From Advenella mimigardefordensis DPN7 (GTDB taxonomy: Bacteria > Pseudomonadota > Gammaproteobacteria > Burkholderiales > Burkholderiaceae_B): 64,000 nucleotides of DNA. Below, in pieces: positions 18,095-53,803 of this stretch; positions within the stretch are counted from its first letter, which is position 1, and the number at the start of each line of letters is the position of its first letter. The notes under the pieces are model-generated. The model was not told where the DNA came from and made no database searches. It was given only the letters and a program-made list of their open reading frames with translations. A program made the position numbers and the translations under genes. The stretch spans positions 3,782,001 to 3,846,000 of the forward strand of contig NZ_CP003915.1 in the NCBI RefSeq assembly GCF_000521505.1, read 5' to 3'.

Positions 18095-18179
18095 GCCCGG
18101 GTGGTGAAATTGGTAGACGCAGGGGACTCAAAATCCCCCGCCGCAAGGCGTGCCGGTTCGATTCCGGCCCCGGGCACCA
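18095..18179 (+). tRNA. tRNA-Leu (anticodon CAA)
   Basis: An 85-base class II tRNA with encoded CCA. The acceptor stem GCCCGGG pairs with CCCGGGC; the D arm contains TGGTGAAATTGGTAGACGC; the anticodon stem GGGGA/TCCCC encloses CTCAAAA with anticodon CAA (reads UUG); there is a long variable arm (GCCGCAAGGCG) and a T arm GCCGGTTCGATTCCGGC. Its 3' 54 bases (18126-18179) are repeated twice further right, so it is the integration target of the accessory block. Confidence 0.97.
18126..18179 (+). repeat. att site copy 1 (3' end of tRNA-Leu)
   Basis: The 54 bases from the anticodon loop to CCA are identical to 26511-26564 and differ at one base from 53750-53803. This is the usual attachment core of tyrosine-recombinase islands that insert into tRNA genes and rebuild the 3' end. 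The upstream flank here is true tRNA sequence, so this is the outermost left junction. Confidence 0.9.
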
Positions 18180-18323
18180 GCTTAAAATTCCTAGTGTTTA
18201 TAAGGCTCTAGCGCGATTTATAGCTTCTACCCCAACACTGGGGGGATTTCCCAAGATTGCGAGTTAGGTACAGTTTCGGTACACTGGTGAAGCGCCGCGT
18301 GCACTTTTGGAGCTTTTCCTCAC

Positions 18324-18435
18324 ATGGCAACCATCGTCAAAACCCCTTCTGGAACCTGGAAAGCCGTCATTCGCAAGACCGGCTGTGGCCTACCACATCT
18401 AAACATATAGAACAAAGCGCGACGCAGAAGACTAG
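18324..18435 (+). pseudogene. Tyrosine integrase N-terminus, frameshifted remnant
   Basis: Starting 145 bases after the tRNA, ATG 18324 opens MATIVKTPSGTWKAVIRKTG, the standard N-terminus (AP2-like DNA-binding arm) of tRNA-targeting phage/island integrases. The frame then slips twice: WPTTSK is read at 18386-18403 in another frame and RTKRDAED at 18409-18432 in a third, with TAG at 18433 where the family has Trp. No catalytic domain follows. It is clearly decayed by small deletions. Bases 18436-18770 hold nothing else recognisable. Confidence 0.75.
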
Positions 18436-19072: not shown

Positions 19073-22000
19073 TTAGAAACGCAACGCCAGCCTTGCCTGC
19101 AGACTATGCTCGCGTGCGCCTGATCCAAACTGTCCTTGATACGCGATGCCAAGCGTGGACGTCTTGCCGATCTTCATATCGAGCCCGGCCTCCAGCACCG
19201 CGGCGTTTCTTGCAATCGGCACCCCTTGCACATTGAACGAGGGCTGATCGCCAAAGGAAAAATCCGCTTTCGGATAAACGCGACCAAAGGCATGGCGCCA
19301 GCCAATGCCACCGTGTACCTGTGCATCGACCTTGCCCAGGGCGAATTCAGAGGTCGCACGCAATCCAATCGTGGTGTAGGTGTTGCTATTGGCCTTGGCA
19401 TGATTTGTCAGGGCCGCTGCACCTCCATCCTCGGTAAAGCGATCCGCCTTGAATCGGACATAGCTCAGATTGGCATAGGGCTCGATGGCCGCAACCCGGG
19501 TCTCAAGCCGATATCCCAACTCTCCAAAGGCCTGAAAAGTACCCGCGTCGTAGCGGCTGGATAGCTTGTCGGAAAAACTGCCGAAAGCGACGCTTCTATC
19601 GGTTTTGATGCGGTGCCAGGTATACCCCAGCCCCGAACGCAGGCGCCAGGCACCCTGGCTTGTGCCGACATAGAGGCCCAAGTGGAAATTGTCGCTGGAT
19701 CCGGATGCGTTGCGGTCCCGTACCCGGACGGACGTATGGCTGTATCCTGCCATCACCCCAAGCCGCCAGCTTTGTCCAACGAGTCTATCGCCGCCCAGGA
19801 AAAAGCCACCAGTGTTTCTTCTGAGGCTGGCGGCATTATCATTCCCATTGATACGGCTCCAGGCGCCAAAACCCTTGCCCCATAGGGTGACTTCGCCGGG
19901 GACCTCTGGCACCTGATCATTACCGTTACTACGATAACTTAGGCTTGATGTCGGCCTGGAACTCGAAGTACCAAACGCGTCCCGCAGGCGCTCATTCTCA
20001 GTATCGCGCAGGAAATGACTGTCTTCGATCAGACCTGCATGAATGGAAGCATGTGCCTCTCCTGACAGCTGATCGAAAGCGTTCCTGGCCTGATCGCCCG
20101 ACAAAAACAGCACGTTTTGATATAACTGATTATCCGACCCTAGATTTTCTATTGCCCGTCCGGTGGTGCGTTGGTTATGCGTATCGGCGACATCCTCGAA
20201 CGCAGTGGAGCTTCGCGCCAAGTCCAAAAACATATTCCGAGCGTCATAAACAAGATTCATATTTACAAACAGCGTGTCTGGTTTCATCACGCTACCATAG
20301 CGTCCATCGACCCCTCCAGCCGCAGTCAGCAAGGTATAACGGCGATTCAGTTCGAGTTTACTGCCAGCATCGGGTTGAATCACTACAGCAGCAGTATCGC
20401 TGATCGTTGCTTTACCACTAACGTCGATGAGATCAGATCGACCATCGTCTGCTATCTGCGCCAGGTAACTGGAACCCGCTCCTTGAATCAAATCGCCCGC
20501 GACTTTAAGCGCACTCAACACTTTAGTCGCGTCCAGCGTACTTCCCGGAGAAATAGTCCCGCCATTGGATAGCGTGACCGTGCCTACCACCCCTGCTCCG
20601 GCCAAAACTCCCCGCTCTGACACGCTAACCGAACCGGCAGTATTGCCCTCTATGCCCAGGGTCCCACCTACCACGCTCGTGCCACCGGTATAGGTATTAT
20701 TGCCGGTAAGCGTCAGTACGCCTTGCCCTCTTTTGGTGAGATCACCCTCACCAGAAATCGAATTGGACCAAACTGAGGAGTAGCCCTGAGTGTCGACATC
20801 AAACACACCTTTGTAACGGAACGTCCCCGGCCCATTGATGGCATTCCCAAGGTTAAGTAACCCCATACCATAGATTTCTTTCTCACCCAGCGTTGTTGTC
20901 GTTGTCAGAAGCGTCTCGATTGTTTGCTGTGCCGTGAAGTAAGGAAATGCAGATCGAACAACTGCCGCAGCTCCTGCCACATGAGGGGATGCCATAGATG
21001 TACCCTCGTCTGATTGGTAAGGATTATTATTATTTTTAGCATCGCCAAGCGGCCAGGTCGAGTTGATGCCGCCCTCTGGACCGTTGTCCGTATCACCACC
21101 AGGTGCAGCCAAGCACCATTCATACATTGCACCACAATGGTTGCTGTAATTCGTAATTTTACCGTTCTTGTCAACGGCGACCACTGCAATTACAGCTCCC
21201 GACAGCTCTGAAAAATCAAGATCTTTCACAGCAGAATCATCGGGTGAAATGAACTTATAAGTCTTGGGGTCATTCATATCAAAATCGTCTTCAGTAGCGT
21301 TAGATACGAACTTATATACCCCATTCGCTGTATTGACGGGCAATATCAGCGGCAGCATGCCGTTTCCACCAGGAATACTTGATGCTTGTGGTTGATCCTC
21401 ATATTCGTTGCCTGCGGCAAACACAAGAACGACATCGTTATCTACCGCATTCTTTAACGTTTCAAAGGTATGGGTCAGTGACTCGGGCGAGGACCAAATA
21501 GGCTGATAGGTCAATTCCTTCCAATTGGGGTTTTCTTTATACTCGCCCGGTTTGGTGGGATCGGGAATATTTTTGTTTAATGTATCAGGGCCGTAACTAC
21601 CATTGATCACTTTTGCACCCTGCTGAACGGCGTAGTCGATCGCAGCTTCGTCAGCTTCGCCATCGACGGACGACTCCACATCAATCGCACGCAAAGGCAA
21701 TATCGTCGACTCATAGGCCACGCCTTGCATACCGGTGCCGTTTCGAGCCGCACCAATAATACCCGCGACATGCGTGCCATGGCCATCTATAGATCCATCG
21801 GCCTTATCAATACCATGGCTGACATCGTCCTCGGCCTTGTCTTTTCCAAAATTCCTCAGGGCACTGGAAATTCTCCCTTGAAACTCAGGATGATTCACAT
21901 CCAGCCCTGTATCCACCACGGCGACGATAATGCCTTTGCCGGTATAACCTTTAAGATACGCAGGCAAAGCATTGATCATCGGCACACCCCAGTTTTTTTG

Positions 22001-22111
22001 GTACTCGGCATCCGCACTCGGATAGATCGGCGCACCGGCAGTCTGAGAAAATGTAATACCTGGTGCCAAAAACCCTAGTGTGGTCATCAATTGCAGGCTT
22101 ACTCGTCGCAT
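19073..22111 (-). CDS. Autotransporter serine protease (subtilisin S8 passenger)
   Basis: A secreted/surface protease of the SphB1/NalP type, about 1012 residues. A signal peptide is followed by an S8 domain with the full triad: Asp in VAVVDTGLD (about residue 67), His in GHGTHVAGI (about 113) and Ser in GTSMASPHVAGAA (about 372). A passenger-associated repeat (LTGNNTYTGGTSVVGGTLGIEGN, positions about 470-495) and a linker lead to a C-terminal 12-strand autotransporter beta-barrel ending LQARLALRF with the terminal Phe. Such enzymes mature other surface adhesins. ATG 22111 is favoured over 22117 because AAGGA then has correct spacing. A divergent AraC-family regulator lies 390 bases upstream. 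Confidence 0.93.
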   Translation of the reverse strand: MRRVSLQLMTTLGFLAPGITFSQTAGAPIYPSADAEYQKNWGVPMINALPAYLKGYTGKGIIVAVVDTGLDVNHPEFQGRISSALRNFGKDKAEDDVSHGIDKADGSIDGHGTHVAGIIGAARNGTGMQGVAYESTILPLRAIDVESSVDGEADEAAIDYAVQQGAKVINGSYGPDTLNKNIPDPTKPGEYKENPNWKELTYQPIWSSPESLTHTFETLKNAVDNDVVLVFAAGNEYEDQPQASSIPGGNGMLPLILPVNTANGVYKFVSNATEDDFDMNDPKTYKFISPDDSAVKDLDFSELSGAVIAVVAVDKNGKITNYSNHCGAMYEWCLAAPGGDTDNGPEGGINSTWPLGDAKNNNNPYQSDEGTSMASPHVAGAAAVVRSAFPYFTAQQTIETLLTTTTTLGEKEIYGMGLLNLGNAINGPGTFRYKGVFDVDTQGYSSVWSNSISGEGDLTKRGQGVLTLTGNNTYTGGTSVVGGTLGIEGNTAGSVSVSERGVLAGAGVVGTVTLSNGGTISPGSTLDATKVLSALKVAGDLIQGAGSSYLAQIADDGRSDLIDVSGKATISDTAAVVIQPDAGSKLELNRRYTLLTAAGGVDGRYGSVMKPDTLFVNMNLVYDARNMFLDLARSSTAFEDVADTHNQRTTGRAIENLGSDNQLYQNVLFLSGDQARNAFDQLSGEAHASIHAGLIEDSHFLRDTENERLRDAFGTSSSRPTSSLSYRSNGNDQVPEVPGEVTLWGKGFGAWSRINGNDNAASLRRNTGGFFLGGDRLVGQSWRLGVMAGYSHTSVRVRDRNASGSSDNFHLGLYVGTSQGAWRLRSGLGYTWHRIKTDRSVAFGSFSDKLSSRYDAGTFQAFGELGYRLETRVAAIEPYANLSYVRFKADRFTEDGGAAALTNHAKANSNTYTTIGLRATSEFALGKVDAQVHGGIGWRHAFGRVYPKADFSFGDQPSFNVQGVPIARNAAVLEAGLDMKIGKTSTLGIAYQGQFGSGAREHSLQARLALRF

Positions 22112-22498
22112 AATCATCCTTGGTCGTGGTCTTGAGTCTCTGGCATTATCGCTATCCGCCGATTTTCACATGAATTTCAGAAATTTCATTTCAATCGGTT
22201 TCACCAATAATTGGGACAATTTTAAACATTTGATATGAAATAACCTCGCTTTGATTATCAAATTTATGCTTTTTTTGCTAAAAATCAGCTTATTTTTTGT
22301 ATTAAATTGTCGAAATACGATATTCTTTAATGTATGTCATCTGTAATAAATACGTATGGAATCAATTGAAGTACCTAAATACATATTTATCCGGGCAAAA
22401 TTAATGGTGCTCAAAAACTTTCCCTACGCCATTCCCTACGCCATTCCCTACGCCAGTATGTAATGTCAGTTTGAACCATCACAAAGGAGAAATGCGCA
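22112..22498. promoter_or_regulatory. AT-rich divergent control region with 12-bp triple repeat
   Basis: 387 bases between the divergent autotransporter and AraC genes, very AT-rich (long T and A runs at 22190-22330). At 22419-22454 the unit TTCCCTACGCCA is repeated three times in direct tandem, just before the AraC ribosome binding site. Direct repeats of this kind can be AraC-type binding sites. No terminator is seen. Confidence 0.6.
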
Positions 22499-27578: not shown

Positions 27579-30500
27579 ATGATAAAAACCATCACCTCCC
27601 TAATTCGCCTACTCGCCAATAGCCTCAATAGCATTTTGTCTTGGCTGGAAAGCAAAGACAGATCCACCAGGGCCCAATCGATATTTGTGGACCTAGCCCC
27701 AACTGATGAGGCAGACAAGGCTGGCGTGTATTCCAAAGCGATTCTGTTTGCGACTAACAATACGAAGGTTTCCAATATTGCTCTAACTGGTCCATATGGT
27801 TCAGGGAAAAGCAGCATCATCCAGACCTTTTTAAAGAAGTACCGTCGGCCTGCGCTTCACATCTCTCTCGCTGCGTTCGTTCCAGAGGCTGATTCGGAAG
27901 GCAAGAAGGTGAGCCGTCAAGAAATTGAGAGAAGTATTCTTCAGCAGATGTTGTATGGTGCTGACGCAAACAAGCTCCCGCTGTCACGGTTCAAGAGAAT
28001 TCAGTCGCCTAGTGTTTTGTCGATCTTTAAGTCTCTTTATATAACACTTGGAATTTTAGCGCTTTGGTATGTGTTTAATCGGCGAGAAGATATCATTAGC
28101 GGCACCTTCTTTGTTCCCCTTGACCTCAGCAATGCATTCAGCCTAGGGATATGCGCGTTTGCAGTAATTTTCCTATGGGTGACACTGCATCACTTTTACG
28201 TTGCCAGCTTCGGTCTGTCACTCAAGAGTATCTCGTTGAAGGACGTTGAAATAAGGCCCGCACATGACGATCAGACATCAATACTGAATCGCCATCTAGA
28301 CGAAATACTCTACTTCTTCCAATCTACCGATTACGATCTCGTAATCATCGAGGATCTGGATCGATTCAATGACGCCGAGATTTTTGTCACGCTGCGCGAA
28401 ATTAATTGCCTTATAAACGAGAATGCCGGCGTGAATCGGACTATCAGGTTCCTCTACGCCTTGCGCGATGACATGTTTACAAATACCGACCGAACCAAGT
28501 TTTTCGAATTTATTGTTCCCGTGATACCGATCATCAATACGTCAAATTCCATAGACATGGTATTGAAGCAAGGGAGAAGGCTTGCGCTTGATGAACGTCT
28601 CGATAGACAGTTTCTGAGAGAGGTCTCACGCTACCTAAATGATTTGAGATTGATCCAGAACATCTTTAACGAATACGCCATTTATGTAGCCAATTTGGAA
28701 ACAGATGGAGATAACCTGCTTGACGCCAACAAACTTCTCGCGATCCTAATCTATAAAAACGTCTATCCAAGGGACTTTGAGCAGTTGCACCGGGGAGTGG
28801 GTAATCTCGCTGAAATATTAAATCGCCAAGACGAACTCATTAGGGATGGCGAAGCCAGATATAGGACCGAGATTGATGAGCTAGAAAAACAACTTGAAGT
28901 AGCTGAGCGACAAACTCCTTCAGACCTAGTGGAGTTGCGACAAATTTACGCTATGGCTTTGATTGAGAAGCTTCCAGACAATGCTATCGGCGTCAGGCTT
29001 GATCATCATGGGACATGGATTGTGCTTCCTCAACTCGCCAGTCACGATGCATTCGAACAGCTGATTGGGGCAACGCGCATACTCTACCGCAATGCCAATA
29101 ATAACCAAAATTGGGTAGATGTTTCCAACTTGCAGGCCGAAGTGGACTCTCAAAAATCCTACCAGCAACGCAAGGGGGAGATCGTAAGTAAAGGTGATGA
29201 TAATAAGAACAAGTTGCTACGCCAAATACACGATCTAAGATTAAGGATCCCAACGCTTCGCATGACTAAGCTCGATGAGCTTTTGCGTTTAAATGCCGAC
29301 CACATAGATGGGCTTTTCAAAGACTTCGAAGAAAACGGAGAGCTCGCCCGCTTTTTGATCTTAGAAGGTCATCTCGACGATACCTACTACCAATACACTT
29401 CACTCTTTCACTCGGGCCGTTTATCGTCGAATGACAACCGGTTTCTGATCCAAATACGGGCATTCGTCACTCCTGAGCCGAATTTTCCACTCGATAATCC
29501 CAAAGAAGTCATCGCAGCGATGAGAGACGAGGACTTCCAACAGGGCTATGTCTTGAACGTTAAGCTCGTCGACAACCTTTTGGCTGATCCGAGTCTTTAT
29601 CATTTTCACTTACAAAAATTTTTCGAGCTTCTCTCATCTGAGTTCGCGCGTTGCGAAGACTTTTTCAGTTCTTATTACACCAGTGGCCTAGACATTGCAG
29701 GACTTCTTCTGAGATTTGCCAACACCTGGAAAAACCTCGTACCAGCTGCCATTGCCAGCCCCAACAATATCTCTCACATTACCCAGTTGATCGCTCATCT
29801 ACCGGAAAGCTCTCTAACAACGCTCGCAAGACACTTTGACGAACTATCAGATTTTACTGCTGAGAACCTCCCAGCAATTCTGCTGCAATCGCCCGAACTA
29901 ACTCCGGGACGCCTTAAATGCCTCGACTTTGAGGTCAAAGATCTAGCCGCAATTAAAGAGCACTCCGAAATTGTCCGCTTCATGTTCGAGGAGGGGCTAT
30001 ACGAACTTACGATAACGAATCTGGAACATGTCTACCAAGAGATTTTAGGAGAGAGCGATCTCAAATCAATGCGCACGAGAAATTTCACTACCCTCCGTGC
30101 AATGAATAACCCAATCTTGATGAAGAGGTTGGAACGTGATTTCAGTCTGTACTTGCGCGATATTCTTTTAGCACTGCAAGAAAACTCCGGGGAAGATATT
30201 CCCGCTATCCTAGCTATTCTTAGCCACGAGACACTTGATCAAGATGATCTTTGGATGTTTCTTGAGAGGCAGACAACCCGACTACAGACTTTAGAAGGTG
30301 TGCCTGAGAAATTGCACGCCACACTTTTCCAACTAAATTCGATTGAGGCAACCTGGATAAATTGTCTCGCTTTCATAGAATCTGGCGGGTTTGAGGAAGA
30401 TAGCCTAATTGGGTATCTTGATCTAGACTCAGTCCGTGCAGCCATCCTGCAAAATTCCATACCAAGCGACTCGGACTCACTGAAACTGCATCAGTTCCTT

Positions 30501-31196
30501 CTCAATGCCGGTTCGCTGTCTGATGCCGCCTACAAAGACTATGCCCATGCTCTGCCGAGCCGGTTCCAAAAGTTGCCCTTAGAGCTCGAACTAAGCAAGC
30601 TTCAAATCCTTGTATCCGAAGAAAAAATTACTTTTAGCAAGGAAAATCTTGATGCACTCACTGAAAACAAAGATTTACAGGTACTGTTCGTCGCCACTAA
30701 TATCGACAAATATTTGAGCGCCCCCAACTCCTTTGCACTCGATGACGATTTCCGAGAAGAGCTTTTACGATCTAATATTGAGAATGCAGAAAAGCTCCGG
30801 GTAATTGCATTAATGGACCTCGAGGCGCTAGCAGACTTACCAGAGCGCTCAGCACTTATTGGCCCGATTATTAACAGTGCGGACGCCAACATACCTAAAA
30901 TAGGCGGTAGAAGTGTGCAATCTTTAGTAATAAACTCTAGGCCAACCGCAACACAGATTTCACTTTTTAATAAATATCATTCGTTTATGTCAGATGACGA
31001 AGTGCGCCATGTCCTAACTAATCTACCCCAACCATTTTCCGAAATTAAAACGGGATATACCACGCCAAGACTGACGAATACCCCAGAGAATCGAGATTTG
31101 GTTCAATGGCTTGATTCGAGAAATATTATATCGTCATGGAGCGACGATCGTTTATTTACTGACGAAATAAGAGTAAATTTGTATAGAAATGGATAA
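27579..31196 (+). CDS. YobI/KAP-type membrane P-loop NTPase
   Basis: 1205 residues. Walker A GPYGSGKSS is at about residues 71-79 and Walker B LVIIEDLDRF at about 254-263. Between them sit two membrane spans (SLYITLGILALWYVF and ICAFAVIFLWVTL, about residues 150-215), the insertion typical of KAP/YobI NTPases, which puts the ATPase domain at the inner face of the membrane. After the NTPase domain come about 850 residues of mostly helical, leucine-rich repeats-like sequence without known motifs, plausibly the sensor. The family includes PifA-related phage-exclusion proteins, so an anti-phage role is likely but inferred. Low GC and rare codons mark it as foreign. Confidence 0.82.
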   Translation: MIKTITSLIRLLANSLNSILSWLESKDRSTRAQSIFVDLAPTDEADKAGVYSKAILFATNNTKVSNIALTGPYGSGKSSIIQTFLKKYRRPALHISLAAFVPEADSEGKKVSRQEIERSILQQMLYGADANKLPLSRFKRIQSPSVLSIFKSLYITLGILALWYVFNRREDIISGTFFVPLDLSNAFSLGICAFAVIFLWVTLHHFYVASFGLSLKSISLKDVEIRPAHDDQTSILNRHLDEILYFFQSTDYDLVIIEDLDRFNDAEIFVTLREINCLINENAGVNRTIRFLYALRDDMFTNTDRTKFFEFIVPVIPIINTSNSIDMVLKQGRRLALDERLDRQFLREVSRYLNDLRLIQNIFNEYAIYVANLETDGDNLLDANKLLAILIYKNVYPRDFEQLHRGVGNLAEILNRQDELIRDGEARYRTEIDELEKQLEVAERQTPSDLVELRQIYAMALIEKLPDNAIGVRLDHHGTWIVLPQLASHDAFEQLIGATRILYRNANNNQNWVDVSNLQAEVDSQKSYQQRKGEIVSKGDDNKNKLLRQIHDLRLRIPTLRMTKLDELLRLNADHIDGLFKDFEENGELARFLILEGHLDDTYYQYTSLFHSGRLSSNDNRFLIQIRAFVTPEPNFPLDNPKEVIAAMRDEDFQQGYVLNVKLVDNLLADPSLYHFHLQKFFELLSSEFARCEDFFSSYYTSGLDIAGLLLRFANTWKNLVPAAIASPNNISHITQLIAHLPESSLTTLARHFDELSDFTAENLPAILLQSPELTPGRLKCLDFEVKDLAAIKEHSEIVRFMFEEGLYELTITNLEHVYQEILGESDLKSMRTRNFTTLRAMNNPILMKRLERDFSLYLRDILLALQENSGEDIPAILAILSHETLDQDDLWMFLERQTTRLQTLEGVPEKLHATLFQLNSIEATWINCLAFIESGGFEEDSLIGYLDLDSVRAAILQNSIPSDSDSLKLHQFLLNAGSLSDAAYKDYAHALPSRFQKLPLELELSKLQILVSEEKITFSKENLDALTENKDLQVLFVATNIDKYLSAPNSFALDDDFREELLRSNIENAEKLRVIALMDLEALADLPERSALIGPIINSADANIPKIGGRSVQSLVINSRPTATQISLFNKYHSFMSDDEVRHVLTNLPQPFSEIKTGYTTPRLTNTPENRDLVQWLDSRNIISSWSDDRLFTDEIRVNLYRNG

Positions 31197-34273: not shown

Positions 34274-34274
34274 T

Positions 34275-36846: not shown

Positions 36847-39800
36847 ATGGCTTTACCCGACATTGATTTCTCTCGAATTCGCCCTCACGATGGAAGCCAA
36901 CATATCGGTTTCGAGGAACTGGTCACGCAGTTGGCGTCCCTTGAGAGACGACCGGCAGGCTCCACCTTTGTACGAAAGGGACGTGGTGGTGATGGTGGAA
37001 TCGAATGCTTCGTTACGCTCGCCAACGGAGACGAATATGGCTGGCAGGCCAAATATGTCTTCAGTTGGGATGCCAGTCTCGAGACCCAACTCAATACATC
37101 GCTAGAAGCGGCACTTGCTAAACATCCCCGTTTGACCAAGCTTACGGTATGTATTCCGTTCGATCTTCCGGATGGACGGCCAAACCAGGGAAATCACGCT
37201 ACCCAGAAAAAGAGTGCTCGTCAAAAATGGGATACGTGGAAGTCCGGCTGGGAACAGCATGCAGCAGTTCAGCAGCGCACGTTGACTATTTCTCTCTGGG
37301 ATAGTGGCGTATTGAGTGGCCGCCTTACCACCGACAGCCCTGCATACAATGGACGGCTACTTTATTGGTTTGGGACTACGACGCTCACTTCCGCGTGGTT
37401 TACAGAGCAGTTTGGAAAAATGCGTGAAGCCCTAGGCTCGCGTTACACGCCCGACACCAATGTCGAATTGCCCATCCGTAAAACTTTCCTCGCGTTCGCC
37501 CGTGATCCGTCGATTAATGACACTGTACTGGAATGGTCACTGTCCCTGGGGGATCGTGGCAGGAGCGCAATTGAGGCCATTGAGCGCGCGCTTGGCAAGA
37601 ACAATCAACCAAAAGAGCTTAGCGCTCTCAGTGCAGCACTAACCTCGCTCAGTCAAGCACTAGATGTAGGGCCTGTCGGCCCAGAAGCTCAATTGCCGCT
37701 CGACGCTTGGCAAAAGGCGAGCCGTGCTTGCTCTTCTGCGTTCTATAACGCGTTGGAGTGGGTCTATACACTTCCGGCGAGTAAAGCGGATCCTGGCGTT
37801 ACCAGGGAGGACTGGGCGCGACATGAACTCTTCCGACTGATTGATATCGTCCGTGACATTGAGGCGGCACTTGATTCCGACGATTGGCAGTTTGCGAACG
37901 CCCATGCCGTACTACTGGAAGGTGAAGCTGGAACGGGCAAGTCGCATCTCCTTGCGGACGTAGTAGAACATCAGATCCACGCAAACCGGCCGGCATTACT
38001 AGTACTGGGTGGAGCGCTGGTTGAGGGTGAACCTTGGAAGCAGATCATGGCGCAACTGGATTTGGCGCCAGACCTACAAGCTAAGCACTTTCTCGGAAGC
38101 CTAGATGCTGCGGGGCAAGCCGCTGGCGTGCGTACTATCATTTGCATTGACGCTATCAATGAACGCCATGGCACGGATATTTGGCCTGATCGTTTAGCTG
38201 CATTTCTTAAGATGGCAGAGCCCTTCCCGCATGTGAGCATCGTGCTATCTTGCCGATCAACCTACGTACGTCATGTGGTGCCCGATTCGCTCGATGAGAA
38301 ACGCTTGCCTCGGGTGCTTCATCAAGGTTTTGCAGTGCGCGGGGGCGAGGCAGCTAACATGTATCTGGCCAAGCGAGGAGTCGTCCGCCCCGGCGCCCCC
38401 GCTTTGGTACCTGAGTTCCAGAATCCGCTCTTCCTCAAAACCTGTTGTGATTTCCTCGAAAAGGTAGGCAAGAACGAGCTCCCTCGCGGCTTACGCGGGG
38501 TAAGTGCCATTTTTAACTTCTATAACAACGCCGTTATCCGCGCCATCACCCAGCGCATGAAACTGGACCCTCATCTTGATCTCGTCGCGACTGCACTAAC
38601 CCTTCTCACAGATATCCTGATCAGTCGCGGCGAAGGATATGCACCCAAAACGGAGGTGATTGGTGCATTCGAGGCCGTTCTGCCCTCTGGAGGCTCTCTT
38701 GAAAGGAGCCTGCTTTCTCAATTTGAGAGTGAAGGTGTTCTAGCCATCGAACTCATTCGAGAGGATGATGGCAAGATAGTGCCCATGGTACGTTTCACCT
38801 TCGAGCGATATAGCGATCACGCCATTGCAGCCCGCTTGCTGCAAGAGCATTTGAATCAGGACGACGTGAAGGCTTCATTTGCTGACAGCACCGTGCTAGG
38901 CGATTTGGCTTTCGGCGAAAAACATTACCGCGTTGCCGGCATCATCGAAGCAATTGCCATCCAGCTACCTGAGCACTGCGGTGTTGAAATCGTAGATCTC
39001 AGACCAGAATTTAATTGGATGATCCGACAAGCATTTTTCGACAGCCTACTTTGGCGCGAGCAGAGATTTTTTAGCGACCGAACCTTTAAATGTCTTCGGG
39101 GTCTCGAAAATAACGAACGTGTTAGCGATGTTCTCATCTCAATAGCAACAGAGCCCGAGAACAAATTCAATGCGCTCTATATACACAAACGCCTTTCATC
39201 GCTTTCAATGCCCGAACGCGATGCCAGTTGGTCGGTCTATTTGAATAATCGTGGCAGCGAAGGTGACCCGGTTGAAGTGCTTATTAACTGGGCCATACAG
39301 AATGGGATGGGAACAATCGACAATGGTCGTGCGGAATTAGCTGCGATCACACTCTCCTGGTTCCTTACTACTTCACACCGTGCAGTTCGCGATAAGACAA
39401 CCAAAGCTTTAGCTTCTCTCTTTGCTATGCGCCTCACCCTGGCAGCGTCTACGCTCAGACTATTCTCTGAAGCAAATGACCTCTATCTCAGGGAACGGCT
39501 TTTTGCTGCTGCCTATGGTGCAGCATTACAGGGAAAAACCGTCGACGGCCTATCCGAACTTGCGGCGACCACCTACGAGCTTGTATTTGCGGCCGGTGCT
39601 CCACCTCTCAACGAACTGCTTCGCGACCACGCGCGTGGTATTATCACCTATGCGCAATTCCGCAAGCAATTGCCGCCCAGCGTCGATTTGACGAAAGCGC
39701 ACCCGCCTCATAAGAGTCAATGGCCGATCGAATATGTATCGGAAGAAAAGATCGATAGCTATCAACAGGACCACGGCGACGCCATCGTCAGTTCGGCGGT

Positions 39801-41388
39801 CAATGACGGTGATTTCGCTCGCTACGTAATCGACCATACGATCGATAACTGGGCGCCTGTATCCATCGACGCAAAAGACTGTCCAAGCGCGCATAGCCTA
39901 GGGAGCGAATGGATCGAGCGATTCACAGTTCAGGCCGGCGCCGAACAGCTTGCTGCGTTTGAGCTCGTAGCGGATGCCGCAAATGCCTGTGGAGGCGACC
40001 TTAGCTATAAAGAAACTCCTGAGCGTACTGCGCTCAAAGCTGCCGAGAACACATTCCAAGCAGTGTTATCGCCTGAAGCATGGGAGGAGTACCGGGTAAA
40101 GGCGCAGGATTTTGTGCGGTATTCCATGTTTTCGCGACAACCATATGACTATCCCGCTCGCTTTAACAGAGGTTGGGGCCGCCGCTGGATATGTATGCGC
40201 GCACATGAACTCGGCTGGACCCAAGAGCGGTTCGCAAAGCTTGAACGCGGATACAGTGGAGATCGGTACGAACATCGTGTGGAACGTATTGGAAAAAAAT
40301 ATCAGTGGCTGGCCCTGCACGAATTGGTCGCAAGAATGGCGGATAATCTGCTATTTATGGGGCAAAGCTACGGAGATGAGTGTCGTACCTACGAAGGCGT
40401 AAGAGATATTAGACTACGAGACATAGACCCATCGCTGCTGGTCACGAAAACCTATTACGACAATTGGAAGCAATGGGATCAGACCTGGTGGATTCCGGTG
40501 CAACCTCGGCTTCGACCTATCGCTCCACTTGAACGCTTAGCGTGGCTGGATAGCCAAATCGACTTGCTCAACGATGCTTCCTTCATTGATCTGACAGACC
40601 CAAAGACGAATCGACATTGGCTGACACTGAGTAGTTTTGCTTCTTGGCGGCAGTACGGCCTCGACGGTGGAAATAAGTCCATGCAGCGCGAGACTTGGTA
40701 CCGCGTTCGCTGCGTAGTCGTTGCAAAAAATGACGAGGCTAGTGCTGTGAAGAGCCTTAGCGGGCGCAACCTCGTTCATCCAGATTCTCTGCCTGAATTC
40801 CATCTTGATAGCTCCTACTTCCTCGGCGAATATCCATGGCACCCTAAGCTACAGGATCAGGATGATTGGGTGGGCGGGAGTCACTGGAATGGCTTGTCAG
40901 TCTCAGTTCGACCTACCTGTGCGCATTATCTGTCCGAGCGAGGCGGCTACGACTACTCGATCGATGAAACAGTTCGAATCGAGTTGCCTGCCCCCTGGCT
41001 TGCGAAAGAGATGGGGTTACGCTTGCAAGACGGTCAGAAGCCGACCTTCGTGGATGTGGATGGCGAAATATGCTTCTTCGATCCATCAGTGATTGAGCCA
41101 GGATACCAAGCAGCGCTCGTTGATCGGGACGCCTTTCTAGCTATGCTGGACCGAAAAGGGTTGGCAGCGATCTGGGTCGTGGCTGGAGAGAAAGGCGTTT
41201 TCGGAGGTAAAGACGGTTACGGAGGATTTGGCGGTCGTGTTTTACATACAACTGTCTATACCCTGGGGGAAAACGGTTTCAAAAAAAACCAGTATAGAAG
41301 CCGTGAAAAACCTAGCCCTGAACAACTGGAAAAATTATTGGAGGACAAGCCGACAGAAGAGCTACTGTTGCTGCATGCAAAGAAATAA
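36847..41388 (+). CDS. Avs-like STAND NTPase with N-terminal nuclease (AVAST, closest to Avs2 layout)
   Basis: About 1513 residues. The N-terminal PD-(D/E)XK nuclease (Cap4/Mrr-like) has Glu in FEELVTQLA, Asp in GGDGGIECF (about residue 50) and the Q-x-K motif in GWQAKYV (about 68). The STAND NTPase domain follows, with Walker A GEAGTGKSHLL (about 359) and Walker B TIICIDAINE (about 430), then some 1000 residues of helical repeats that in Avs proteins recognise phage terminase or portal. This matches the AVAST architecture: phage protein binding triggers tetramerisation and DNA cleavage, causing abortive infection. ATG 36847 is preferred; GTG 36835 adds four residues. It is a single gene, as Avs2 usually is. 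The subtype is an inference. Confidence 0.8.
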   Translation: MALPDIDFSRIRPHDGSQHIGFEELVTQLASLERRPAGSTFVRKGRGGDGGIECFVTLANGDEYGWQAKYVFSWDASLETQLNTSLEAALAKHPRLTKLTVCIPFDLPDGRPNQGNHATQKKSARQKWDTWKSGWEQHAAVQQRTLTISLWDSGVLSGRLTTDSPAYNGRLLYWFGTTTLTSAWFTEQFGKMREALGSRYTPDTNVELPIRKTFLAFARDPSINDTVLEWSLSLGDRGRSAIEAIERALGKNNQPKELSALSAALTSLSQALDVGPVGPEAQLPLDAWQKASRACSSAFYNALEWVYTLPASKADPGVTREDWARHELFRLIDIVRDIEAALDSDDWQFANAHAVLLEGEAGTGKSHLLADVVEHQIHANRPALLVLGGALVEGEPWKQIMAQLDLAPDLQAKHFLGSLDAAGQAAGVRTIICIDAINERHGTDIWPDRLAAFLKMAEPFPHVSIVLSCRSTYVRHVVPDSLDEKRLPRVLHQGFAVRGGEAANMYLAKRGVVRPGAPALVPEFQNPLFLKTCCDFLEKVGKNELPRGLRGVSAIFNFYNNAVIRAITQRMKLDPHLDLVATALTLLTDILISRGEGYAPKTEVIGAFEAVLPSGGSLERSLLSQFESEGVLAIELIREDDGKIVPMVRFTFERYSDHAIAARLLQEHLNQDDVKASFADSTVLGDLAFGEKHYRVAGIIEAIAIQLPEHCGVEIVDLRPEFNWMIRQAFFDSLLWREQRFFSDRTFKCLRGLENNERVSDVLISIATEPENKFNALYIHKRLSSLSMPERDASWSVYLNNRGSEGDPVEVLINWAIQNGMGTIDNGRAELAAITLSWFLTTSHRAVRDKTTKALASLFAMRLTLAASTLRLFSEANDLYLRERLFAAAYGAALQGKTVDGLSELAATTYELVFAAGAPPLNELLRDHARGIITYAQFRKQLPPSVDLTKAHPPHKSQWPIEYVSEEKIDSYQQDHGDAIVSSAVNDGDFARYVIDHTIDNWAPVSIDAKDCPSAHSLGSEWIERFTVQAGAEQLAAFELVADAANACGGDLSYKETPERTALKAAENTFQAVLSPEAWEEYRVKAQDFVRYSMFSRQPYDYPARFNRGWGRRWICMRAHELGWTQERFAKLERGYSGDRYEHRVERIGKKYQWLALHELVARMADNLLFMGQSYGDECRTYEGVRDIRLRDIDPSLLVTKTYYDNWKQWDQTWWIPVQPRLRPIAPLERLAWLDSQIDLLNDASFIDLTDPKTNRHWLTLSSFASWRQYGLDGGNKSMQRETWYRVRCVVVAKNDEASAVKSLSGRNLVHPDSLPEFHLDSSYFLGEYPWHPKLQDQDDWVGGSHWNGLSVSVRPTCAHYLSERGGYDYSIDETVRIELPAPWLAKEMGLRLQDGQKPTFVDVDGEICFFDPSVIEPGYQAALVDRDAFLAMLDRKGLAAIWVVAGEKGVFGGKDGYGGFGGRVLHTTVYTLGENGFKKNQYRSREKPSPEQLEKLLEDKPTEELLLLHAKK

Positions 41389-46962: not shown

Positions 46963-46991
46963 TATGCGTTTTTCCAAGTGACAGAGAGATT

Positions 46992-47423: not shown

Positions 47424-47430
47424 TACCTAC

Positions 47431-50400
47431 TCAATAGGGTGCAAACTCAATATAGGGGCGCTTTAGATATTCGTATTTTCTAATATCAACAGGTACAGGA
47501 TTAGGCCATACATTTTGTGGCCATACCTTTCCTCCATAGAACCAAGAACTCAAACCTGCTCCCTTAAATGCTGCATAATGATAAGCATCAATGTCATCAC
47601 CATAAACACAATCGGTAGAACTATCTACCTTCCCTGCAGAACGTGCCGCCTTATCGGACTCAACAAGAGATTTACGAATCTTTTCAAGGATGGTCGCCTG
47701 TGAGTCGCTTGAGTTTCCTATAGCCCATGCGGTAGAAATACCCAAGTTCGACATACCATTCACAGCACCGTTTTTCCCTCTACAAATATCCCCCGCTGCT
47801 TCATAATAATCACATTTTGGATGAGCCTTAAACATATCATCATAGTAACTACACACTGCAGTATCACCGACTCCATTCCAGTCCCATTTTTCAAGCCCCA
47901 TAGGATCAACAGCCGTTAACGGATTATTAGCCACATATTGGTACTGATTACTTCCGCCTTGTAATCCAATTGGATCCTGATTGATATAACGGCCCGCTTC
48001 CGCGTCATAATACCTGAACCGATTGTAATGCAGACCTGACTCCGCATCATAATATTGACCAGGGAACCGAATGGGATTATCAACGTCGGCAACAATCTGC
48101 TTGGTCACTCGGCCATAGGTATCCATTTGCGCAGCCCACACGATCCTACGAGACTCATCATACATTTCCTGAGGCGTACCCAGATGATCGGTAACATAAT
48201 GATGATAACGTCGATGCCCGCTTAAAAGCGTCAGCGGCCCCAAGAAATCCGGATGGCGAATAAATGTCTTTACCTGATCCTCATGCGAATCATTTGCTGC
48301 CGCCAGCTCCTGAATCATCCAATCGCCGTCCCACATGAAGAGCGTGGTTTGCGAGTCATTATTATGCGTCGTATGATGTTTGGCGATACGACGCCCAAAG
48401 GCATCATAACGATACTGTATCTTGGCCCCACCCGGATGATCAATCTGAATCAATTGATGATCCCCATCATAATGGTAGCGCGTGCTTTTTGCTAACGGCT
48501 CACTGCCAGAGCCCGGCTCTATCGTTTCTGCAGTCTCGACACTGGAAGATTCAATCGCGGAAGCCGATATGGGAGTTGAGATTCCCGTCATTTGAGACAC
48601 CCGGTTTCCATGACCATCATAGTCATACGATAAATACTGCTCTGCAATCTGAGAGTTAAATAGTCGTAAGAGTCGATTCCCTGGAGCCTGGCCTTGGCCG
48701 AACTGCACCGGAACCTCATAGCCTTGGCTTTTCGCAATGGCAATCAAGTTGTCCGCCTGGTCATAGGCAAAGTTCTCATACCAATTTCCCAACCTTTCAA
48801 CGCACTGGCTGACTTCAGTGACTCGCGCCAGTGCATCATACTGGTAGCTCTTGGTTCCGCGATATACATCTCGCAGATTCAATAACTGTCCCGCAACATC
48901 ATATTTCCAAGCCCGCCAGCCGCGCGGCTGGCCTAGCTGCTTGCCTTGTTCATCCAGGTCTTGCCACAAGTGCGCCTCAAGCCAACCGGCTTCGCTATAA
49001 CTAAACTGATGAGAAACTCGCCCCTGGTTTCTCAATACCTCGCGATGCAATCCGTCCCGTTCGAAACTGGCAACGGTATCCTCATCAAGTAACATCTCAT
49101 GGATATGTCCAGAACCGTAGCGCAACCATTTAAGTTTCCCCGCAGAGGGAATTCGGCTGGCAATCCGATTACCTAGCGCGTCCAATTCATGAGTGATGCG
49201 CCATACGCGGCCATGATGTGCCTGCATTTCGGCTATCTTGTGCCCAGCTGCATCATATTCATAGGTAATTCGATGCGGCTGTTCGCCAGGCATCGCAACT
49301 ACTTGCGCCTGGGTTAAACGGCTCCGTGCATCATAGCGATAACTCACATGCATACCGTCGCTGACGCGCCGCTCGACTGGCCGTCCCAGCGCATCGTAAA
49401 CATAGGTAGTAGTAATCTGACCGTCATTACCAATATCAATCCGTTCGATCAGCTCCCCTGCAGCATTGTATTTAAATATCTGACGCCGACCGTCAAAGCC
49501 TGTTTCAGAGACTCTTCTGCCGCGAGAGTCATAAACCAGCGTAGTAGATTCACCTTTTGCATTGGTAATTTTGATAAGTTGCCCGATTCGGTCATACTCA
49601 AACAACAAGTTGCCTTTTGCCGCGTTGATGACTTCGACGCGCTGGTTATACGCATCCCAGCGGGTCTGCGTTACACGCTGCAGCGGATCAGTGTTTGCAA
49701 TCGGCCGTCCCGCCTTATCATGCTCAATACGCCACCAGCCTCTTCCAACCGGCTTATTACCGATAACACGACCTGCTTGATCCCATTGCTGTTCGCTGAC
49801 CTGCCCCAGCGGATTGGTCGTCGCAGTCAATTGGCCAAGAGAATCATATTGATATTTCGTCTGATTTCCGGAGCAATCAACCTTGGATACTAATTGCCCG
49901 GCCTCGTCCCATTGCATCTTGGTGGCATTGCCCATGGGATCAGTGCGCGAAACCGGCAGGCCATTGGCATAGGCATAGCTCGTGCTATGACCCAGTGGAT
50001 CGGTCTCACTGGCCAGGTTGCCCGCTTCGTCATAACTGCGCTGCCACACATGGCCTGCCGGATCGGTAATATGCACCGGCTGATTCTGTGCGTTATAGGA
50101 TAGGCTGGTCACGTTTCCTGCCGCATCGATAACCGATGTCGGGCTGCCTGCCGCGTTGTTCACAATCCGTGTGCTGCGTCCTAGCGCATCCGTATGGCCT
50201 GAGATGCTGCCCGTCTCGTCGAAATGAATTTGCTCCACGCTGCCGTCCGGATGCGTCACGCGATCCACCGCCCACAGCCCGTTATAGTGGTACTCTGTTG
50301 TGTTGCCCAGCCCATCGGTGACCTGCGTCGTTTTGGAGGCTGGCAGATACGTAAAGCGTGTATCACGCGTGATCATCGGCTTGGCTCCCGGCGCTGCGGC

Positions 50401-53328
50401 ATTCTCCGCATACGCATAGGTGCGCACGCATCGCGCCTGCGGCGTGTCGCCATCCCATTCCGAGATATGTACCGCGCCCGAAGGCGTACGATACTCGTTA
50501 AGTAAATGATGCGCATACCGATAACGCCAGACACGAGCAGCTCTGTCTACCGCACGAACCAGATCACCTTGCTCATCGTAAGAATAGCGAGCCAGTGCCT
50601 GTCCATCCTCATCGCCAGCCAGATACAACGCCAAAATCCTTCCCCGTGTATCCAGCTCACTAAGCACGGTGTATCGGTTATTATTTAACTGCTTGAGCCA
50701 TCCTTGAACAGTGTACTGAATCTGCAGCCATTGTCCATCACGCGTTGTGATTCGATGTAATTGCCAACGCTTAGGCTCTTTGGGATGTCGAACATAGTGT
50801 TCTTCAGTGCCATTGGTAAAACAAATTCGGTAGCGCGGATGCGAAGCATTATCTTCAGTACGTTGCAGCGTGTATTTCTCTATCGGATGGAAATGTTCCT
50901 CACCAACCGCCAAATTCGGGAAGTTTAATTGGCGGCCATCGGCATCGAAATACACCATGCCTGCCGCGCCCTGTCTGATTTCTGTCGAGTAAGGCAGTTT
51001 CCAAGCGATGCCCAAATGCCCTTCTCGCTGGTCCGCGCTGCGATACATCCGGCTCCAGCGTATCGGCATGCGGCCCGGCAACATAAAATCATCGGTAACC
51101 AGTACCTTCTGCCCCGTGGCTACATCCACCGGATGGGGCGTTGTCGTGCGCTTGGCACACTCGGCGCAATCGGCCTCGGTGACCGGCACCAGCCCTTGTG
51201 CATCGCCCCCCGTCATACTGATGATCGGCGCCTGCAAGTAAATGCCTTTACCCCGGATGCGGATTCCGGCTTCGTCAATTGTGATAACGCCACCCGGGCC
51301 AATCAGCTTGGCATATTGAGCACCTGACAAGCTCGCCTGGCCGCCGTCGGTAATTCGGATCTGATTGGCGTCTGAGCTTTCCACCGCACTTGGCAATTGC
51401 GGCTGAAAATCCGGCGTGGCAATCAAGGGACGCTGCGCATCTTTCCTGACCGTGGTCTCTACCGCCTTGCCGCGCACCGTCACCGAATACACATGACCGA
51501 CATCCGAAGTCCAGCTTTGCACTACCCGGTCAGTTCTGTCCATTCCCACTGTACTGGCCATCTGCAGGCCAATATTGCGCAAGTACAGGCCGCCCACATT
51601 CACGTTGTAGGCCATGCCCACATTCATCATCTTGCCCAGTCCCACGCTCTGCACCGAGGCCAAATTGACGGTTTCCTGCTTAAAACCTCCCGTATTCAGC
51701 TTCCAGTGCCAGCGGATCTTGTCGGTCTTGTTGTTCCCGACCGTCAGCGTGTCGTTGTGTTCGACCTCAACGTCCTGATTGCGCTCGGCATGAATCCACA
51801 GTTGTTCCTGCCCCTTCTTGTCCTCGAAGCGGATTGCATTGGCCGTCTCATAATTTCCCCCGGGGGACGAACGTGAATACAACCCCATCTGCGTGGCATT
51901 ATCTGGCAGTTTCCACGGCGGCATCATCGCTGCGTTGTATACCCGGCCTGTGATGATCGGCGCGTCAGGATCCCCGTTTAGGAAGTCAACAATAACTTCA
52001 TCGCCGATTCTTGGCACCTGGATCGCGCCAAAGTTACCACTGGCCCAACTGCTCGACACCCGGATCCAGCATGAACTGTTCTCGTCTTTCTTGTCGTATC
52101 GGTCCCAGTGAAAATGCACCTTGACCTGGCCATATTCATTAGTCCAGATTTCTTTGCCTTCAGGTCCCACCACTACAGCTGTTTGTGGTCCCAGTGTACG
52201 CGGCTTGCGAGTCGTGCGCGGTGGCCGAAACGGTAAAGTGGCGCATTGCACGGTGAGATCGAACAGGCAGAGCCGGCCATTTTGTGCCGCCTCTTCGGGC
52301 GAGTTTACTGAATGGTAGTTGTTTTCTTTCAGATCATAGCGGGTGCCCAGCACCACATACTCACGATTCTCTTCTGTGCGCGGGCAACGAACCAGATTGA
52401 ACAACGAACCCGTTGCCACACCGCGTGCCGTGCTGCGCAGTGTTCGTGTATCACGAACATGATGCTGCTCCTGCATGCGCTGGCGGGCATAGCGCTCACC
52501 CAGGGGATCGTCCTCGTAATTGCCCGGCCATTCATACACTTCGGCCTGATTATGCTCGTGCTCCAGCTCAATCCCATGGTGGGCTGCCAGATCCGCTTTC
52601 GGTGTGGTGAAGTTGTAATCGTTGGTGATGTATTGCCCGGGTCTCAAATCCTGATACACCGCCACATGCGTCATGTAGTCCTGCTGCGGCAACGCCAGTT
52701 TATCTTCGGTGAAATACGGCACGTGCTCGTAACCGTCTACCGGCTTGTGACTCTGGATTTCATCGCTCATGACCAGGGTATGTTTTTCCTGCTCATGACG
52801 AAAGTAATAATGAATGCCTTCGGCCTCCAGCAACCTGCTCACAAACTGAAAATCAGTTTCGTCATACTGCACGCAATAGACCCGCGGCGCGTAGGTCTCC
52901 ACCAGGTCGAACTCGAACGCATACCCATAGGGCGAGAGCACCTGCTTGATGGTCTCTGGCACAGACTGGTTCTGGTAGATGCGGAATTCTTTTTTGTGTG
53001 TCGCCAGCCAGAACCAAGGCACCACGCGCGCTTCGTACACAAAGTAACGATCAACATCGCCTTCCTGGCCCACCAGCGCAAAACTGGCGATCACGCCGTT
53101 GATATGCCGGGGCGCTGCCGCCGTGTTGATGGTCAAAGTCAGGGATTTACCAAGCAATGCCCTCACATCAACCTGCATCGAACGATGCAGCAGGCGTACG
53201 GTATAGTCGGAAAGGGTAGACATCCCATCCGTGCCTTGCATGGCGTCAAACAGGAATTCGGCATTATCAGCCGCAATGGAGACCTTGATCAGCCGGTCAG
53301 GGTTAATTATATTTATGTTCGCAGACAT
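47431..53328 (-). CDS. VgrG-Rhs fusion effector with C-terminal polymorphic toxin
   Basis: 1965 residues in one frame. Part 1 (1 to about 620) is a full VgrG: gp27-like head (MSANINIINPDRLIKVSIAA), gp5-like OB fold (EYGQVKVHFHWDRYDKK; SGNFGAIQVPRIGDEVIVDF) and beta-helix needle. Part 2 (about 720-1812) is an Rhs shell starting PHPVDVATGQKVLVTDDFML, with many YD repeats (YDxxGxL/I) and the core end FRYYDAEAGRYINQDPIGL ... DPMGL at 1808-1812. Part 3 (1813-1965, bases 47434-47892) is the variable tip with five Cys; it matches no toxin family I know. Rhs shells usually ride on PAAR or separate VgrG; here the spike is built in. The immunity candidate and PAAR gene follow. No T6SS structural genes are in the window. 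Confidence 0.92.
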   Translation of the reverse strand: MSANINIINPDRLIKVSIAADNAEFLFDAMQGTDGMSTLSDYTVRLLHRSMQVDVRALLGKSLTLTINTAAAPRHINGVIASFALVGQEGDVDRYFVYEARVVPWFWLATHKKEFRIYQNQSVPETIKQVLSPYGYAFEFDLVETYAPRVYCVQYDETDFQFVSRLLEAEGIHYYFRHEQEKHTLVMSDEIQSHKPVDGYEHVPYFTEDKLALPQQDYMTHVAVYQDLRPGQYITNDYNFTTPKADLAAHHGIELEHEHNQAEVYEWPGNYEDDPLGERYARQRMQEQHHVRDTRTLRSTARGVATGSLFNLVRCPRTEENREYVVLGTRYDLKENNYHSVNSPEEAAQNGRLCLFDLTVQCATLPFRPPRTTRKPRTLGPQTAVVVGPEGKEIWTNEYGQVKVHFHWDRYDKKDENSSCWIRVSSSWASGNFGAIQVPRIGDEVIVDFLNGDPDAPIITGRVYNAAMMPPWKLPDNATQMGLYSRSSPGGNYETANAIRFEDKKGQEQLWIHAERNQDVEVEHNDTLTVGNNKTDKIRWHWKLNTGGFKQETVNLASVQSVGLGKMMNVGMAYNVNVGGLYLRNIGLQMASTVGMDRTDRVVQSWTSDVGHVYSVTVRGKAVETTVRKDAQRPLIATPDFQPQLPSAVESSDANQIRITDGGQASLSGAQYAKLIGPGGVITIDEAGIRIRGKGIYLQAPIISMTGGDAQGLVPVTEADCAECAKRTTTPHPVDVATGQKVLVTDDFMLPGRMPIRWSRMYRSADQREGHLGIAWKLPYSTEIRQGAAGMVYFDADGRQLNFPNLAVGEEHFHPIEKYTLQRTEDNASHPRYRICFTNGTEEHYVRHPKEPKRWQLHRITTRDGQWLQIQYTVQGWLKQLNNNRYTVLSELDTRGRILALYLAGDEDGQALARYSYDEQGDLVRAVDRAARVWRYRYAHHLLNEYRTPSGAVHISEWDGDTPQARCVRTYAYAENAAAPGAKPMITRDTRFTYLPASKTTQVTDGLGNTTEYHYNGLWAVDRVTHPDGSVEQIHFDETGSISGHTDALGRSTRIVNNAAGSPTSVIDAAGNVTSLSYNAQNQPVHITDPAGHVWQRSYDEAGNLASETDPLGHSTSYAYANGLPVSRTDPMGNATKMQWDEAGQLVSKVDCSGNQTKYQYDSLGQLTATTNPLGQVSEQQWDQAGRVIGNKPVGRGWWRIEHDKAGRPIANTDPLQRVTQTRWDAYNQRVEVINAAKGNLLFEYDRIGQLIKITNAKGESTTLVYDSRGRRVSETGFDGRRQIFKYNAAGELIERIDIGNDGQITTTYVYDALGRPVERRVSDGMHVSYRYDARSRLTQAQVVAMPGEQPHRITYEYDAAGHKIAEMQAHHGRVWRITHELDALGNRIASRIPSAGKLKWLRYGSGHIHEMLLDEDTVASFERDGLHREVLRNQGRVSHQFSYSEAGWLEAHLWQDLDEQGKQLGQPRGWRAWKYDVAGQLLNLRDVYRGTKSYQYDALARVTEVSQCVERLGNWYENFAYDQADNLIAIAKSQGYEVPVQFGQGQAPGNRLLRLFNSQIAEQYLSYDYDGHGNRVSQMTGISTPISASAIESSSVETAETIEPGSGSEPLAKSTRYHYDGDHQLIQIDHPGGAKIQYRYDAFGRRIAKHHTTHNNDSQTTLFMWDGDWMIQELAAANDSHEDQVKTFIRHPDFLGPLTLLSGHRRYHHYVTDHLGTPQEMYDESRRIVWAAQMDTYGRVTKQIVADVDNPIRFPGQYYDAESGLHYNRFRYYDAEAGRYINQDPIGLQGGSNQYQYVANNPLTAVDPMGLEKWDWNGVGDTAVCSYYDDMFKAHPKCDYYEAAGDICRGKNGAVNGMSNLGISTAWAIGNSSDSQATILEKIRKSLVESDKAARSAGKVDSSTDCVYGDDIDAYHYAAFKGAGLSSWFYGGKVWPQNVWPNPVPVDIRKYEYLKRPYIEFAPY

Positions 53329-53592
53329 CTAAATACTGGCAGGCCTGCGCTGCACCCGCCCCTTTTATTTAAAACTGTTCTTATTTATTGAGAAACAACC
53401 ACTTACGGGTATTATAAAGAGACAGGTTTGAAGGCTATACCTATTTTTACAAATTATTTCAATAGTCTCGGTGGCCACTCAATTCAATAAGTCAGGTGAA
53501 TCACAGCCCGACTTCATTTGGTAGCGCTGCTTAATGGCACGTCCTTTAAAGCTAGAGCGACGATGATACTCATCCGAACCCGTTTTTGCTTA

Positions 53593-53803
53593 AATTACTG
53601 TACCGAATTTCGGTACATTACAGGTACACCCATCAGTTCTCGACAATTTCGCCAATTTACGCTAACCTACTGATTAGTAATTACTTTTACCTATTTTAAC
53701 CTACGTTCAGCTTCGCTACGTTTTCCTATACAAACACCTTAAAACGCAAACTCAAAATCCCCCGCCGCAAGGCGTGCCGGTTCGATTCCGACCCCGGGCA
53801 CCA
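53593..53803 (+). repeat. Right-end repeat of GI-2 including att copy 3
   Basis: 211 bases, the same length as 26354-26564 and gap-free in alignment. Its last 54 bases (53750-53803) are the tRNA-Leu 3' end with one change (CCGGCCCC to CCGACCCC). It marks the outer right junction of the accessory block. The dyad TGTACCGAA-T-TTCGGTACA is at 53599-53617. Confidence 0.88.

What the first reader, a model, noticed from the sequence alone, without database searches (positions are those of the whole stretch)
18126..53803. Two tandem integrative elements at one tRNA-Leu, with three att copies
The 54-base 3' end of tRNA-Leu(CAA) is present at 18126-18179, 26511-26564 (identical) and 53750-53803 (one mismatch). 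The two right-hand copies also share 157 bases of upstream DNA without gaps. Such a layout means two related elements integrated in series. One holds a surface-protease module, the other defence and competition genes. No intact integrase remains, so they are either fixed or mobilised in trans.
Basis: seen in the sequence. Interest (0 to 1): 0.75.

Follow-up and report, generated by a model that had tools for sequence, protein, structure and literature searches.

The report
Decayed mobile-element array at tRNA-Leu
Next to one leucine tRNA gene this bacterium carries a row of at least three worn-out mobile DNA elements that brought anti-phage defence genes and a surface protease, and they belong to a widespread element family that joins chromosomes inside tRNA genes.

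Summary
Full tRNA-Leu(CAA) lies at 18095-18179, with 3'-end copies at 26511-26564 (54/54) and 53750-53803 (53/54); the last two share about 210 b. A profile of this end, made from 64 copies, finds a third, decayed right end at 35202-35367; integrase fragments lie at 18324-18432 and, beyond the last copy, 54556-54654. So there are at least three elements plus a trace of a fourth, not two. The right end occurs in 66 of 268 genomes of the family and lies downstream of tRNA-Leu(CAA), same strand, in 49 of 49 copies that share a stretch with it. Some relatives carry an intact tyrosine integrase about 135 b after the tRNA, then MobC-like, relaxase, VirB5 and VirB6 genes and cargo: a mobilizable element resembling IncP islands. 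Best reading: serial integration by one element family, then loss of integrase and transfer genes, leaving defence genes (Tmn, AriAB, Avs2 by best match), an autotransporter protease and an Rhs/VgrG gene. The middle end is far more decayed than the outer one, so the second 'element' is probably a composite that arrived as one. Known kind of structure; I did not find this element family named.

The parts
18095..18179 (+). tRNA-Leu(CAA), the integration target; its last 54 b (18126-18179) are the repeated part
18180..18323 (+). left arm of element A, with two GGTACA-like repeats around 18264-18286
   Evidence: left-arm profile 93.7 bits at 18181-18315; 94% to G007 over the first 109 b
18324..18432 (+). 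integrase remnant, residues 1-36, frame broken
19073..22117 (-). subtilase (S8) autotransporter, cargo of A
   Evidence: PF00082, PF03797
22499..23416 (+). AraC-type regulator, cargo of A
   Evidence: PF12833
26350..26564 (+). right end of A: conserved arm plus 54-b tRNA 3' copy (26511-26564)
   Evidence: profile 202 bits
26730..27065 (+). remnant in B that matches the G003 unit (79%), where the segment overlaps the VirB6-side backbone of relatives
27579..31196 (+). Tmn-like ATPase, cargo of B
   Evidence: PADLOC Tmn 275 bits; PF20693
33314..35162 (+). AriA-like (33314-34273) and AriB-like (34275-35162) pair, PARIS-type, cargo of B
   Evidence: PADLOC E 8.6e-27 and 1.1e-14
35202..35367 (+). 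third right end, decayed, between B and C
   Evidence: profile 48.6 bits, E 2e-14
36835..41388 (+). Avs2-like defence protein, cargo of C
   Evidence: PADLOC Avs2 1806 bits; NCBIfam Avs2 929 bits, below its cut-off of 1000
47431..53328 (-). VgrG-Rhs protein, cargo of C
   Evidence: PF05954, PF05593 and others
53590..53803 (+). outer right end: conserved arm plus 53/54 tRNA 3' copy (53750-53803)
   Evidence: profile 194.5 bits
54556..54654 (+). integrase remnant, residues 328-360: trace of a fourth, outer element

Best explanation
An array of decayed integrative and mobilizable elements (IMEs) of one family at tRNA-Leu(CAA). In intact relatives a tyrosine integrase encoded just inside the left end recombines the anticodon-arm part of the tRNA gene with the same sequence on the element; the element restores the tRNA 3' end, and the displaced 3' end marks its right border beside a conserved right arm (shown by anatomy; the reaction is inferred). 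Repeated GGTACA motifs at both ends are the likely arm-binding sites of the integrase (inferred). Elements entered one after another, then lost integrase and transfer genes while cargo stayed. B and C, with a dead right end between them but better-kept copies at both borders, probably entered together as one composite (about 0.55); A came later at the tRNA; a trace of an older element lies outside. Without an integrase from elsewhere nothing here should move.
For: Right end in 66 of 268 family genomes; 66 of 77 copies with arm sequence run into the tRNA part; 49 of 49 with tRNA on the stretch lie downstream on its strand. Integrase after the tRNA: of 43 stretches with tRNA and right end, 17 intact, 13 broken or partial (window included), 13 none, by a script criterion. 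An integrase start follows an internal right end in G166, an integrase remnant in G017, and a left arm in G003, so units once had their own left ends. GGTAC/GTACC in left arms 63 (31 Leu) and 99 (42 Met) against base-shuffle maxima 21 and 19. Right ends: 202, 48.6, 194.5 bits from inside out in the window; in 5 of 5 other stretches with two, the outer is lower.
Against: No left arm was found at the start of B or after 53803, and no relaxase, MobC, VirB5 or VirB6 in the window by tblastn, so that B and C were IMEs of this family rests on their right ends and one 79% remnant. In G101, G102 and G225 a native-looking terminator sits between tRNA and right end, which plain integration does not explain. 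The 5 comparison stretches include two with only a partial outer end and one without the tRNA on it. The composite rests on one locus; local gene conversion between the two good ends could mimic it.
Confidence: 0.82

Rival explanations
1. Exactly two elements in series; the middle right end is chance or unrelated cargo.
For: Only two well-kept right ends exist, and only they have near-perfect tRNA copies.
Against: The middle end aligns over profile positions 2-184, E 2e-14, in the right orientation just after the AriB-like gene; the integrase remnant at 54556 needs a further element.
Confidence: 0.08
2. An integron-like platform: one tRNA-side integrase serves many integrase-less units that each end in the right arm plus att copy.
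For: 13 of 43 stretches have no integrase between tRNA and first right end; G003 and G143, of two genera, share about 5 kb of an integrase-less unit at 97%.
Against: Internal units in G166 and G017 have their own integrase start or remnant. The G003 and G143 left ends differ (76% over about 210 b), so separate loss after transfer is as likely.
Confidence: 0.1
3. Prophages or phage satellites that decayed, rather than mobilizable elements.
For: Tyrosine integrase and tRNA 3' target also fit phages.
Against: The relative L106 has relaxase, MobC/NikA-like, VirB5 and VirB6 proteins and no phage structural match among ten ORFs scanned. The right end (166 b) has no match in 50,697 phage records, nor in 72,556 plasmid records.
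Confidence: 0.04

Closest known systems
CIMEs and tandem accretion of ICEs/IMEs (review PMC5704250; passages read)
   Same: Elements that lost integration and transfer genes but kept att sites, accreted in tandem at one tRNA 3' end; the review also allows whole composites to move.
   Different: Here at least three units of one family, a dead internal end inside a better-kept pair, and defence cargo. Mobilization in cis is not shown.
IncP island and GIsul2 (PMC5704250, section 3.3 read)
   Same: Intact relatives of the window's elements carry relaxase, a MobC/NikA-like protein and VirB5 and VirB6 without a full secretion system in the stretch read.
   Different: The table passages seen list guaA as site of the Brucella IncP island and GIsul2; this family uses tRNA-Leu(CAA), relatives tRNA-Met(CAT). 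The window's own elements lack the module.
Dehalococcoides ssrA islands (PMC3146451; passages read)
   Same: Tandem islands at one RNA gene, a conserved motif beside each repeat, and 15 islands without integration module read there as possible CIMEs.
   Different: Serine recombinase and tmRNA there; tyrosine integrase and a tRNA anticodon arm here.

Membership tests
IME family at tRNA-Leu(CAA) defined here by right end and integrase | conserved right arm joined to a tRNA-Leu(CAA) 3' copy | tested here: met
   two strong and one decayed copy
IME family at tRNA-Leu(CAA) defined here by right end and integrase | integrase just after the tRNA | tested here: met
   only as a remnant, 18324-18432, with its left arm
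functional IME | intact integrase | tested here: not met
   own genome has remnants only
functional IME | relaxase or other mobilization genes | tested here: not met
   no tblastn hit of L106 proteins in the window or 80 kb beyond; other mobilization types not searched
CIME | integrase and transfer genes lost, attL and attR kept | tested here: inconclusive
   A has left arm and right end; B+C has two tRNA copies and a right end but no left arm found
CIME | mobilized in cis by an accreted element | not testable with these tools
   needs excision and transfer assays
IncP island | relaxase plus TrbJ/VirB5 and TrbL/VirB6 on the element | tested here: met
   in relative L106, not in the window
IncP island | integration at guaA (as listed for Brucella and GIsul2) | tested here: not met
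   tRNA-Leu(CAA) or tRNA-Met(CAT) in 73 of 80 loci; no such tRNA within 600 b in 7

The most novel reading that the evidence does not exclude
One integrase lineage, with GGTACA arm sites at both ends, changed its target between tRNA-Met(CAT) and tRNA-Leu(CAA) through a one-base difference in the anticodon loop (ACTCATAATC against ACTCAAAATC), and in Alcaligenaceae the Leu site became a shared dock where integrase-less units of defence genes are moved in trans and built into composites.
Probability: 0.25. Interest if true: 0.75.

Novelty: new member of a known kind. Interest (0 to 1): 0.5.

Why it matters
It gives borders and a parent family for an island with three recognisable defence systems, and a 195-position signature that finds such elements and their remains across the family. 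The Leu/Met split with one base of difference in the shared core makes a clean test of how tyrosine integrases change tRNA target. The out-of-order decay of the right ends shows how composite islands might be dated from their own att sites.

Tried and rejected
Chance repeats: rejected by shuffles. Core cargo: not supported by DNA searches of the genus (DNA level only, and for 36801-53600 in the larger genomes only 30 of up to 53 first-look candidates were scored). Right end on phages or plasmids: no match. Known RNA in 17900-54800: Rfam gives only the tRNA at gathering threshold. More right ends in the window at maximum sensitivity: none above noise. Hits of the type INT[180-244] or INT[215-244] come from one query, a 244-aa ORF of L141 whose tail is foreign; I did not count them as integrase. 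Cargo scan: 62 of 83 non-backbone ORFs of at least 230 aa from 23 loci went into; I left out 21 by hand. One search scanned 9 that I picked for size near right ends: 7 of 9 matched a PADLOC model at 1e-10 or better. One search kept the best 80 of 355 loci; 275 were not seen. Only 4 of the 42 Met-type loci showed the right end within the fetched flank. Movement without an own integrase (G003/G143): not claimed, because the left ends differ. Literature: listings of searches showed no description of this tRNA-Leu(CAA) family; I read one section and passages of PMC5704250 and passages of PMC3146451, PMC7826576 and PMC5373536; PMC2717098 (Bordetella petrii islands) was seen as a listing only.

Full report
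Observation. The window holds one tRNA gene, tRNA-Leu(CAA) at 18095-18179. Its last 54 bases recur at 26511-26564 unchanged and at 53750-53803 with one change, and these two copies share about 210 bases (201 of 218 aligned columns). One search finds only one other, 78% match in the own genome of 4,764,126 bases. That size is what I recall for Advenella mimigardefordensis; no call names the genome.

A conserved right end. The 141 bases before the tRNA copy, searched alone, occur in 66 of 268 genomes of the family, 27 of 43 genera. From fetched stretches I made a 195-position profile of arm plus tRNA part from 64 copies, the window's two good ones included. On 90 stretches it finds 77 copies with arm sequence; 66 of them reach position 170 or beyond in the tRNA part. 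Of 49 copies that share a stretch with tRNA-Leu(CAA), 49 lie downstream of it on the same strand. In the window it finds a third right end, decayed, at 35202-35367 (E 2e-14).

The integrase. Just after the tRNA some relatives encode a tyrosine integrase of about 355-375 residues (PF00589) about 135 bases in. Of 43 stretches with tRNA and right end, 17 have it intact, 13 broken or partial (window included) and 13 not at all, by a script criterion. The window keeps residues 1-36 at 18324-18432 and residues 328-360 at 54556-54654. The second fragment lies beyond the last tRNA copy, so an older element began there; no right end for it was found in the 80 kb after the window. In the whole own genome there are only these two remnants and one distant relative at 23% identity. 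Among 10 genomes of the genus only G007 has a close integrase, split between two frames. In 6 of 61 stretches the tRNA is followed at once by a strong hairpin (-22 to -29 kcal/mol) with a T-run, as a terminator would be; 53803 is not followed by one, so it is probably not the old junction (inference).

Ends. Left arms of 31 Leu-type and 42 Met-type relatives hold 63 and 99 GGTAC/GTACC words, base-shuffle maxima 21 and 19, mostly as two repeats like GGTACAGTTTCGGTACAGT before the integrase gene. The right arm begins with similar repeats. I read them as arm-type integrase sites; that is inferred. The window's A has such a left arm (93.7 bits); none was found at the start of B or after 53803.

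Targets. The scan of named genomes met 355 relatives of the integrase and kept the best 80. A tRNA lies within 600 bases of 73: Leu(CAA) for 31 and CAT, called Met by ARAGORN, for 42. The 30 with 79% identity or more are Leu; of 43 with 66-75%, 42 are Met and one, L234, is Leu. In the sequences printed the shared core differs by one base, ACTCAAAATC against ACTCATAATC. Four Met-type loci have the same right arm; in three of them a Met 3' copy of at least 40 of 45 bases follows, in the fourth only the core is clear. Most other flanks may end before the right border.

Parent family. L106 shows integrase, MobC/NikA-like protein, relaxase, VirB5 and VirB6 between cargo genes. The review PMC5704250 describes such elements as the IncP island and the relaxase-less GIsul2 and lists guaA as site for the Brucella IncP island and GIsul2. 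So the family works like them but by target is not one of them. The module is not universal: in the single-locus units only 5 relaxase, 5 VirB5 and 5 VirB6 ORFs were kept among 110 ORFs of at least 230 aa, a lower bound because overlapping ORFs were dropped. In the window none is detectable.

Cargo. A: subtilase autotransporter and AraC regulator. B: Tmn-like ATPase and AriA/AriB-like pair. C: Avs2 (PADLOC 1806 bits, but NCBIfam 929 bits, under its cut-off of 1000), MarR, ketoacyl synthase and VgrG-Rhs. In other genera cargo includes Lamassu, Hachiman, Thoeris-like, type III restriction and PD-Lambda-4 matches (7 of 9 picked proteins) and SIR2-HerA. In 9 other genomes of the genus, matches at this site are short except an Rhs relative about 28 kb from the tRNA in G007; longer matches of A cargo lie elsewhere, at 76% in G001 and 79% in G003.

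Order of events. Elements entering at the tRNA push older ones outward, so the outer end should be the most worn. In 5 of 5 other stretches with two right ends the outer one scores lower, though two outer ends are partial and one stretch lacks the tRNA. In the window the scores run 202, 48.6, 194.5. Entry of C at the outer end of B would also leave the outermost tRNA part older than the middle one, so it does not fit either (inference). The simplest account is that B and C, with the dead end between them, came in together, and A afterwards. The review says that such a course cannot be excluded and that CIME-ICE tandems have been seen to transfer (passage). I put this step at about 0.55.

Units without integrase. 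G003 and G143, of two genera, share about 5 kb of such a unit at 97%, but their left ends differ, so separate loss after transfer is as likely. I do not claim movement in trans; it is part of the novel case only.

Verdict. A real, bounded array of decayed mobilizable elements: a known kind of structure, from an element family that my searches did not find named.

Noticed in passing
L097 (G102), L103 (G101), L072 (G225): A strong terminator-like hairpin sits directly after the tRNA although a family right end lies 4-12 kb downstream; plain integration would have displaced it.
   Followed up: no
L126 (G003) and L121 (G143): Two genera share about 5 kb at 97% in an integrase-less unit with SIR2-HerA and HNH-type genes; the left ends differ.
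   Followed up: partly
L106 18536-19819: A second integrase of another type (Arm-DNA-bind_3, Phage_int_M) starts just after the right end at 18360, so unrelated islands may use the displaced tRNA end as well.
   Followed up: no
window 47431-53328; own genome C1:3902801-3906437 and C1:3909950-3911660: Relatives of the VgrG-Rhs gene at 82-83% lie about 67-76 kb further right in the same genome.
   Followed up: no
window 19073-23365; own genome C1:6726-10981: A diverged copy (66-70%) of the S8 autotransporter and AraC stretch lies near the start of the chromosome record.
   Followed up: no
L124, L192-L195 (G001); L129, L130, L159, L160, L199 (G006): Weak tRNA-Leu 3'-end or right-arm matches are scattered over about 90-100 kb downstream of the tRNA, as if still older elements lay there.
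   Followed up: no
window 35633-36547: ORF of 304 aa beside the Avs2-like gene with only a weak match to the candidate defence family PDC-S02 (E 1.4e-4).
   Followed up: no
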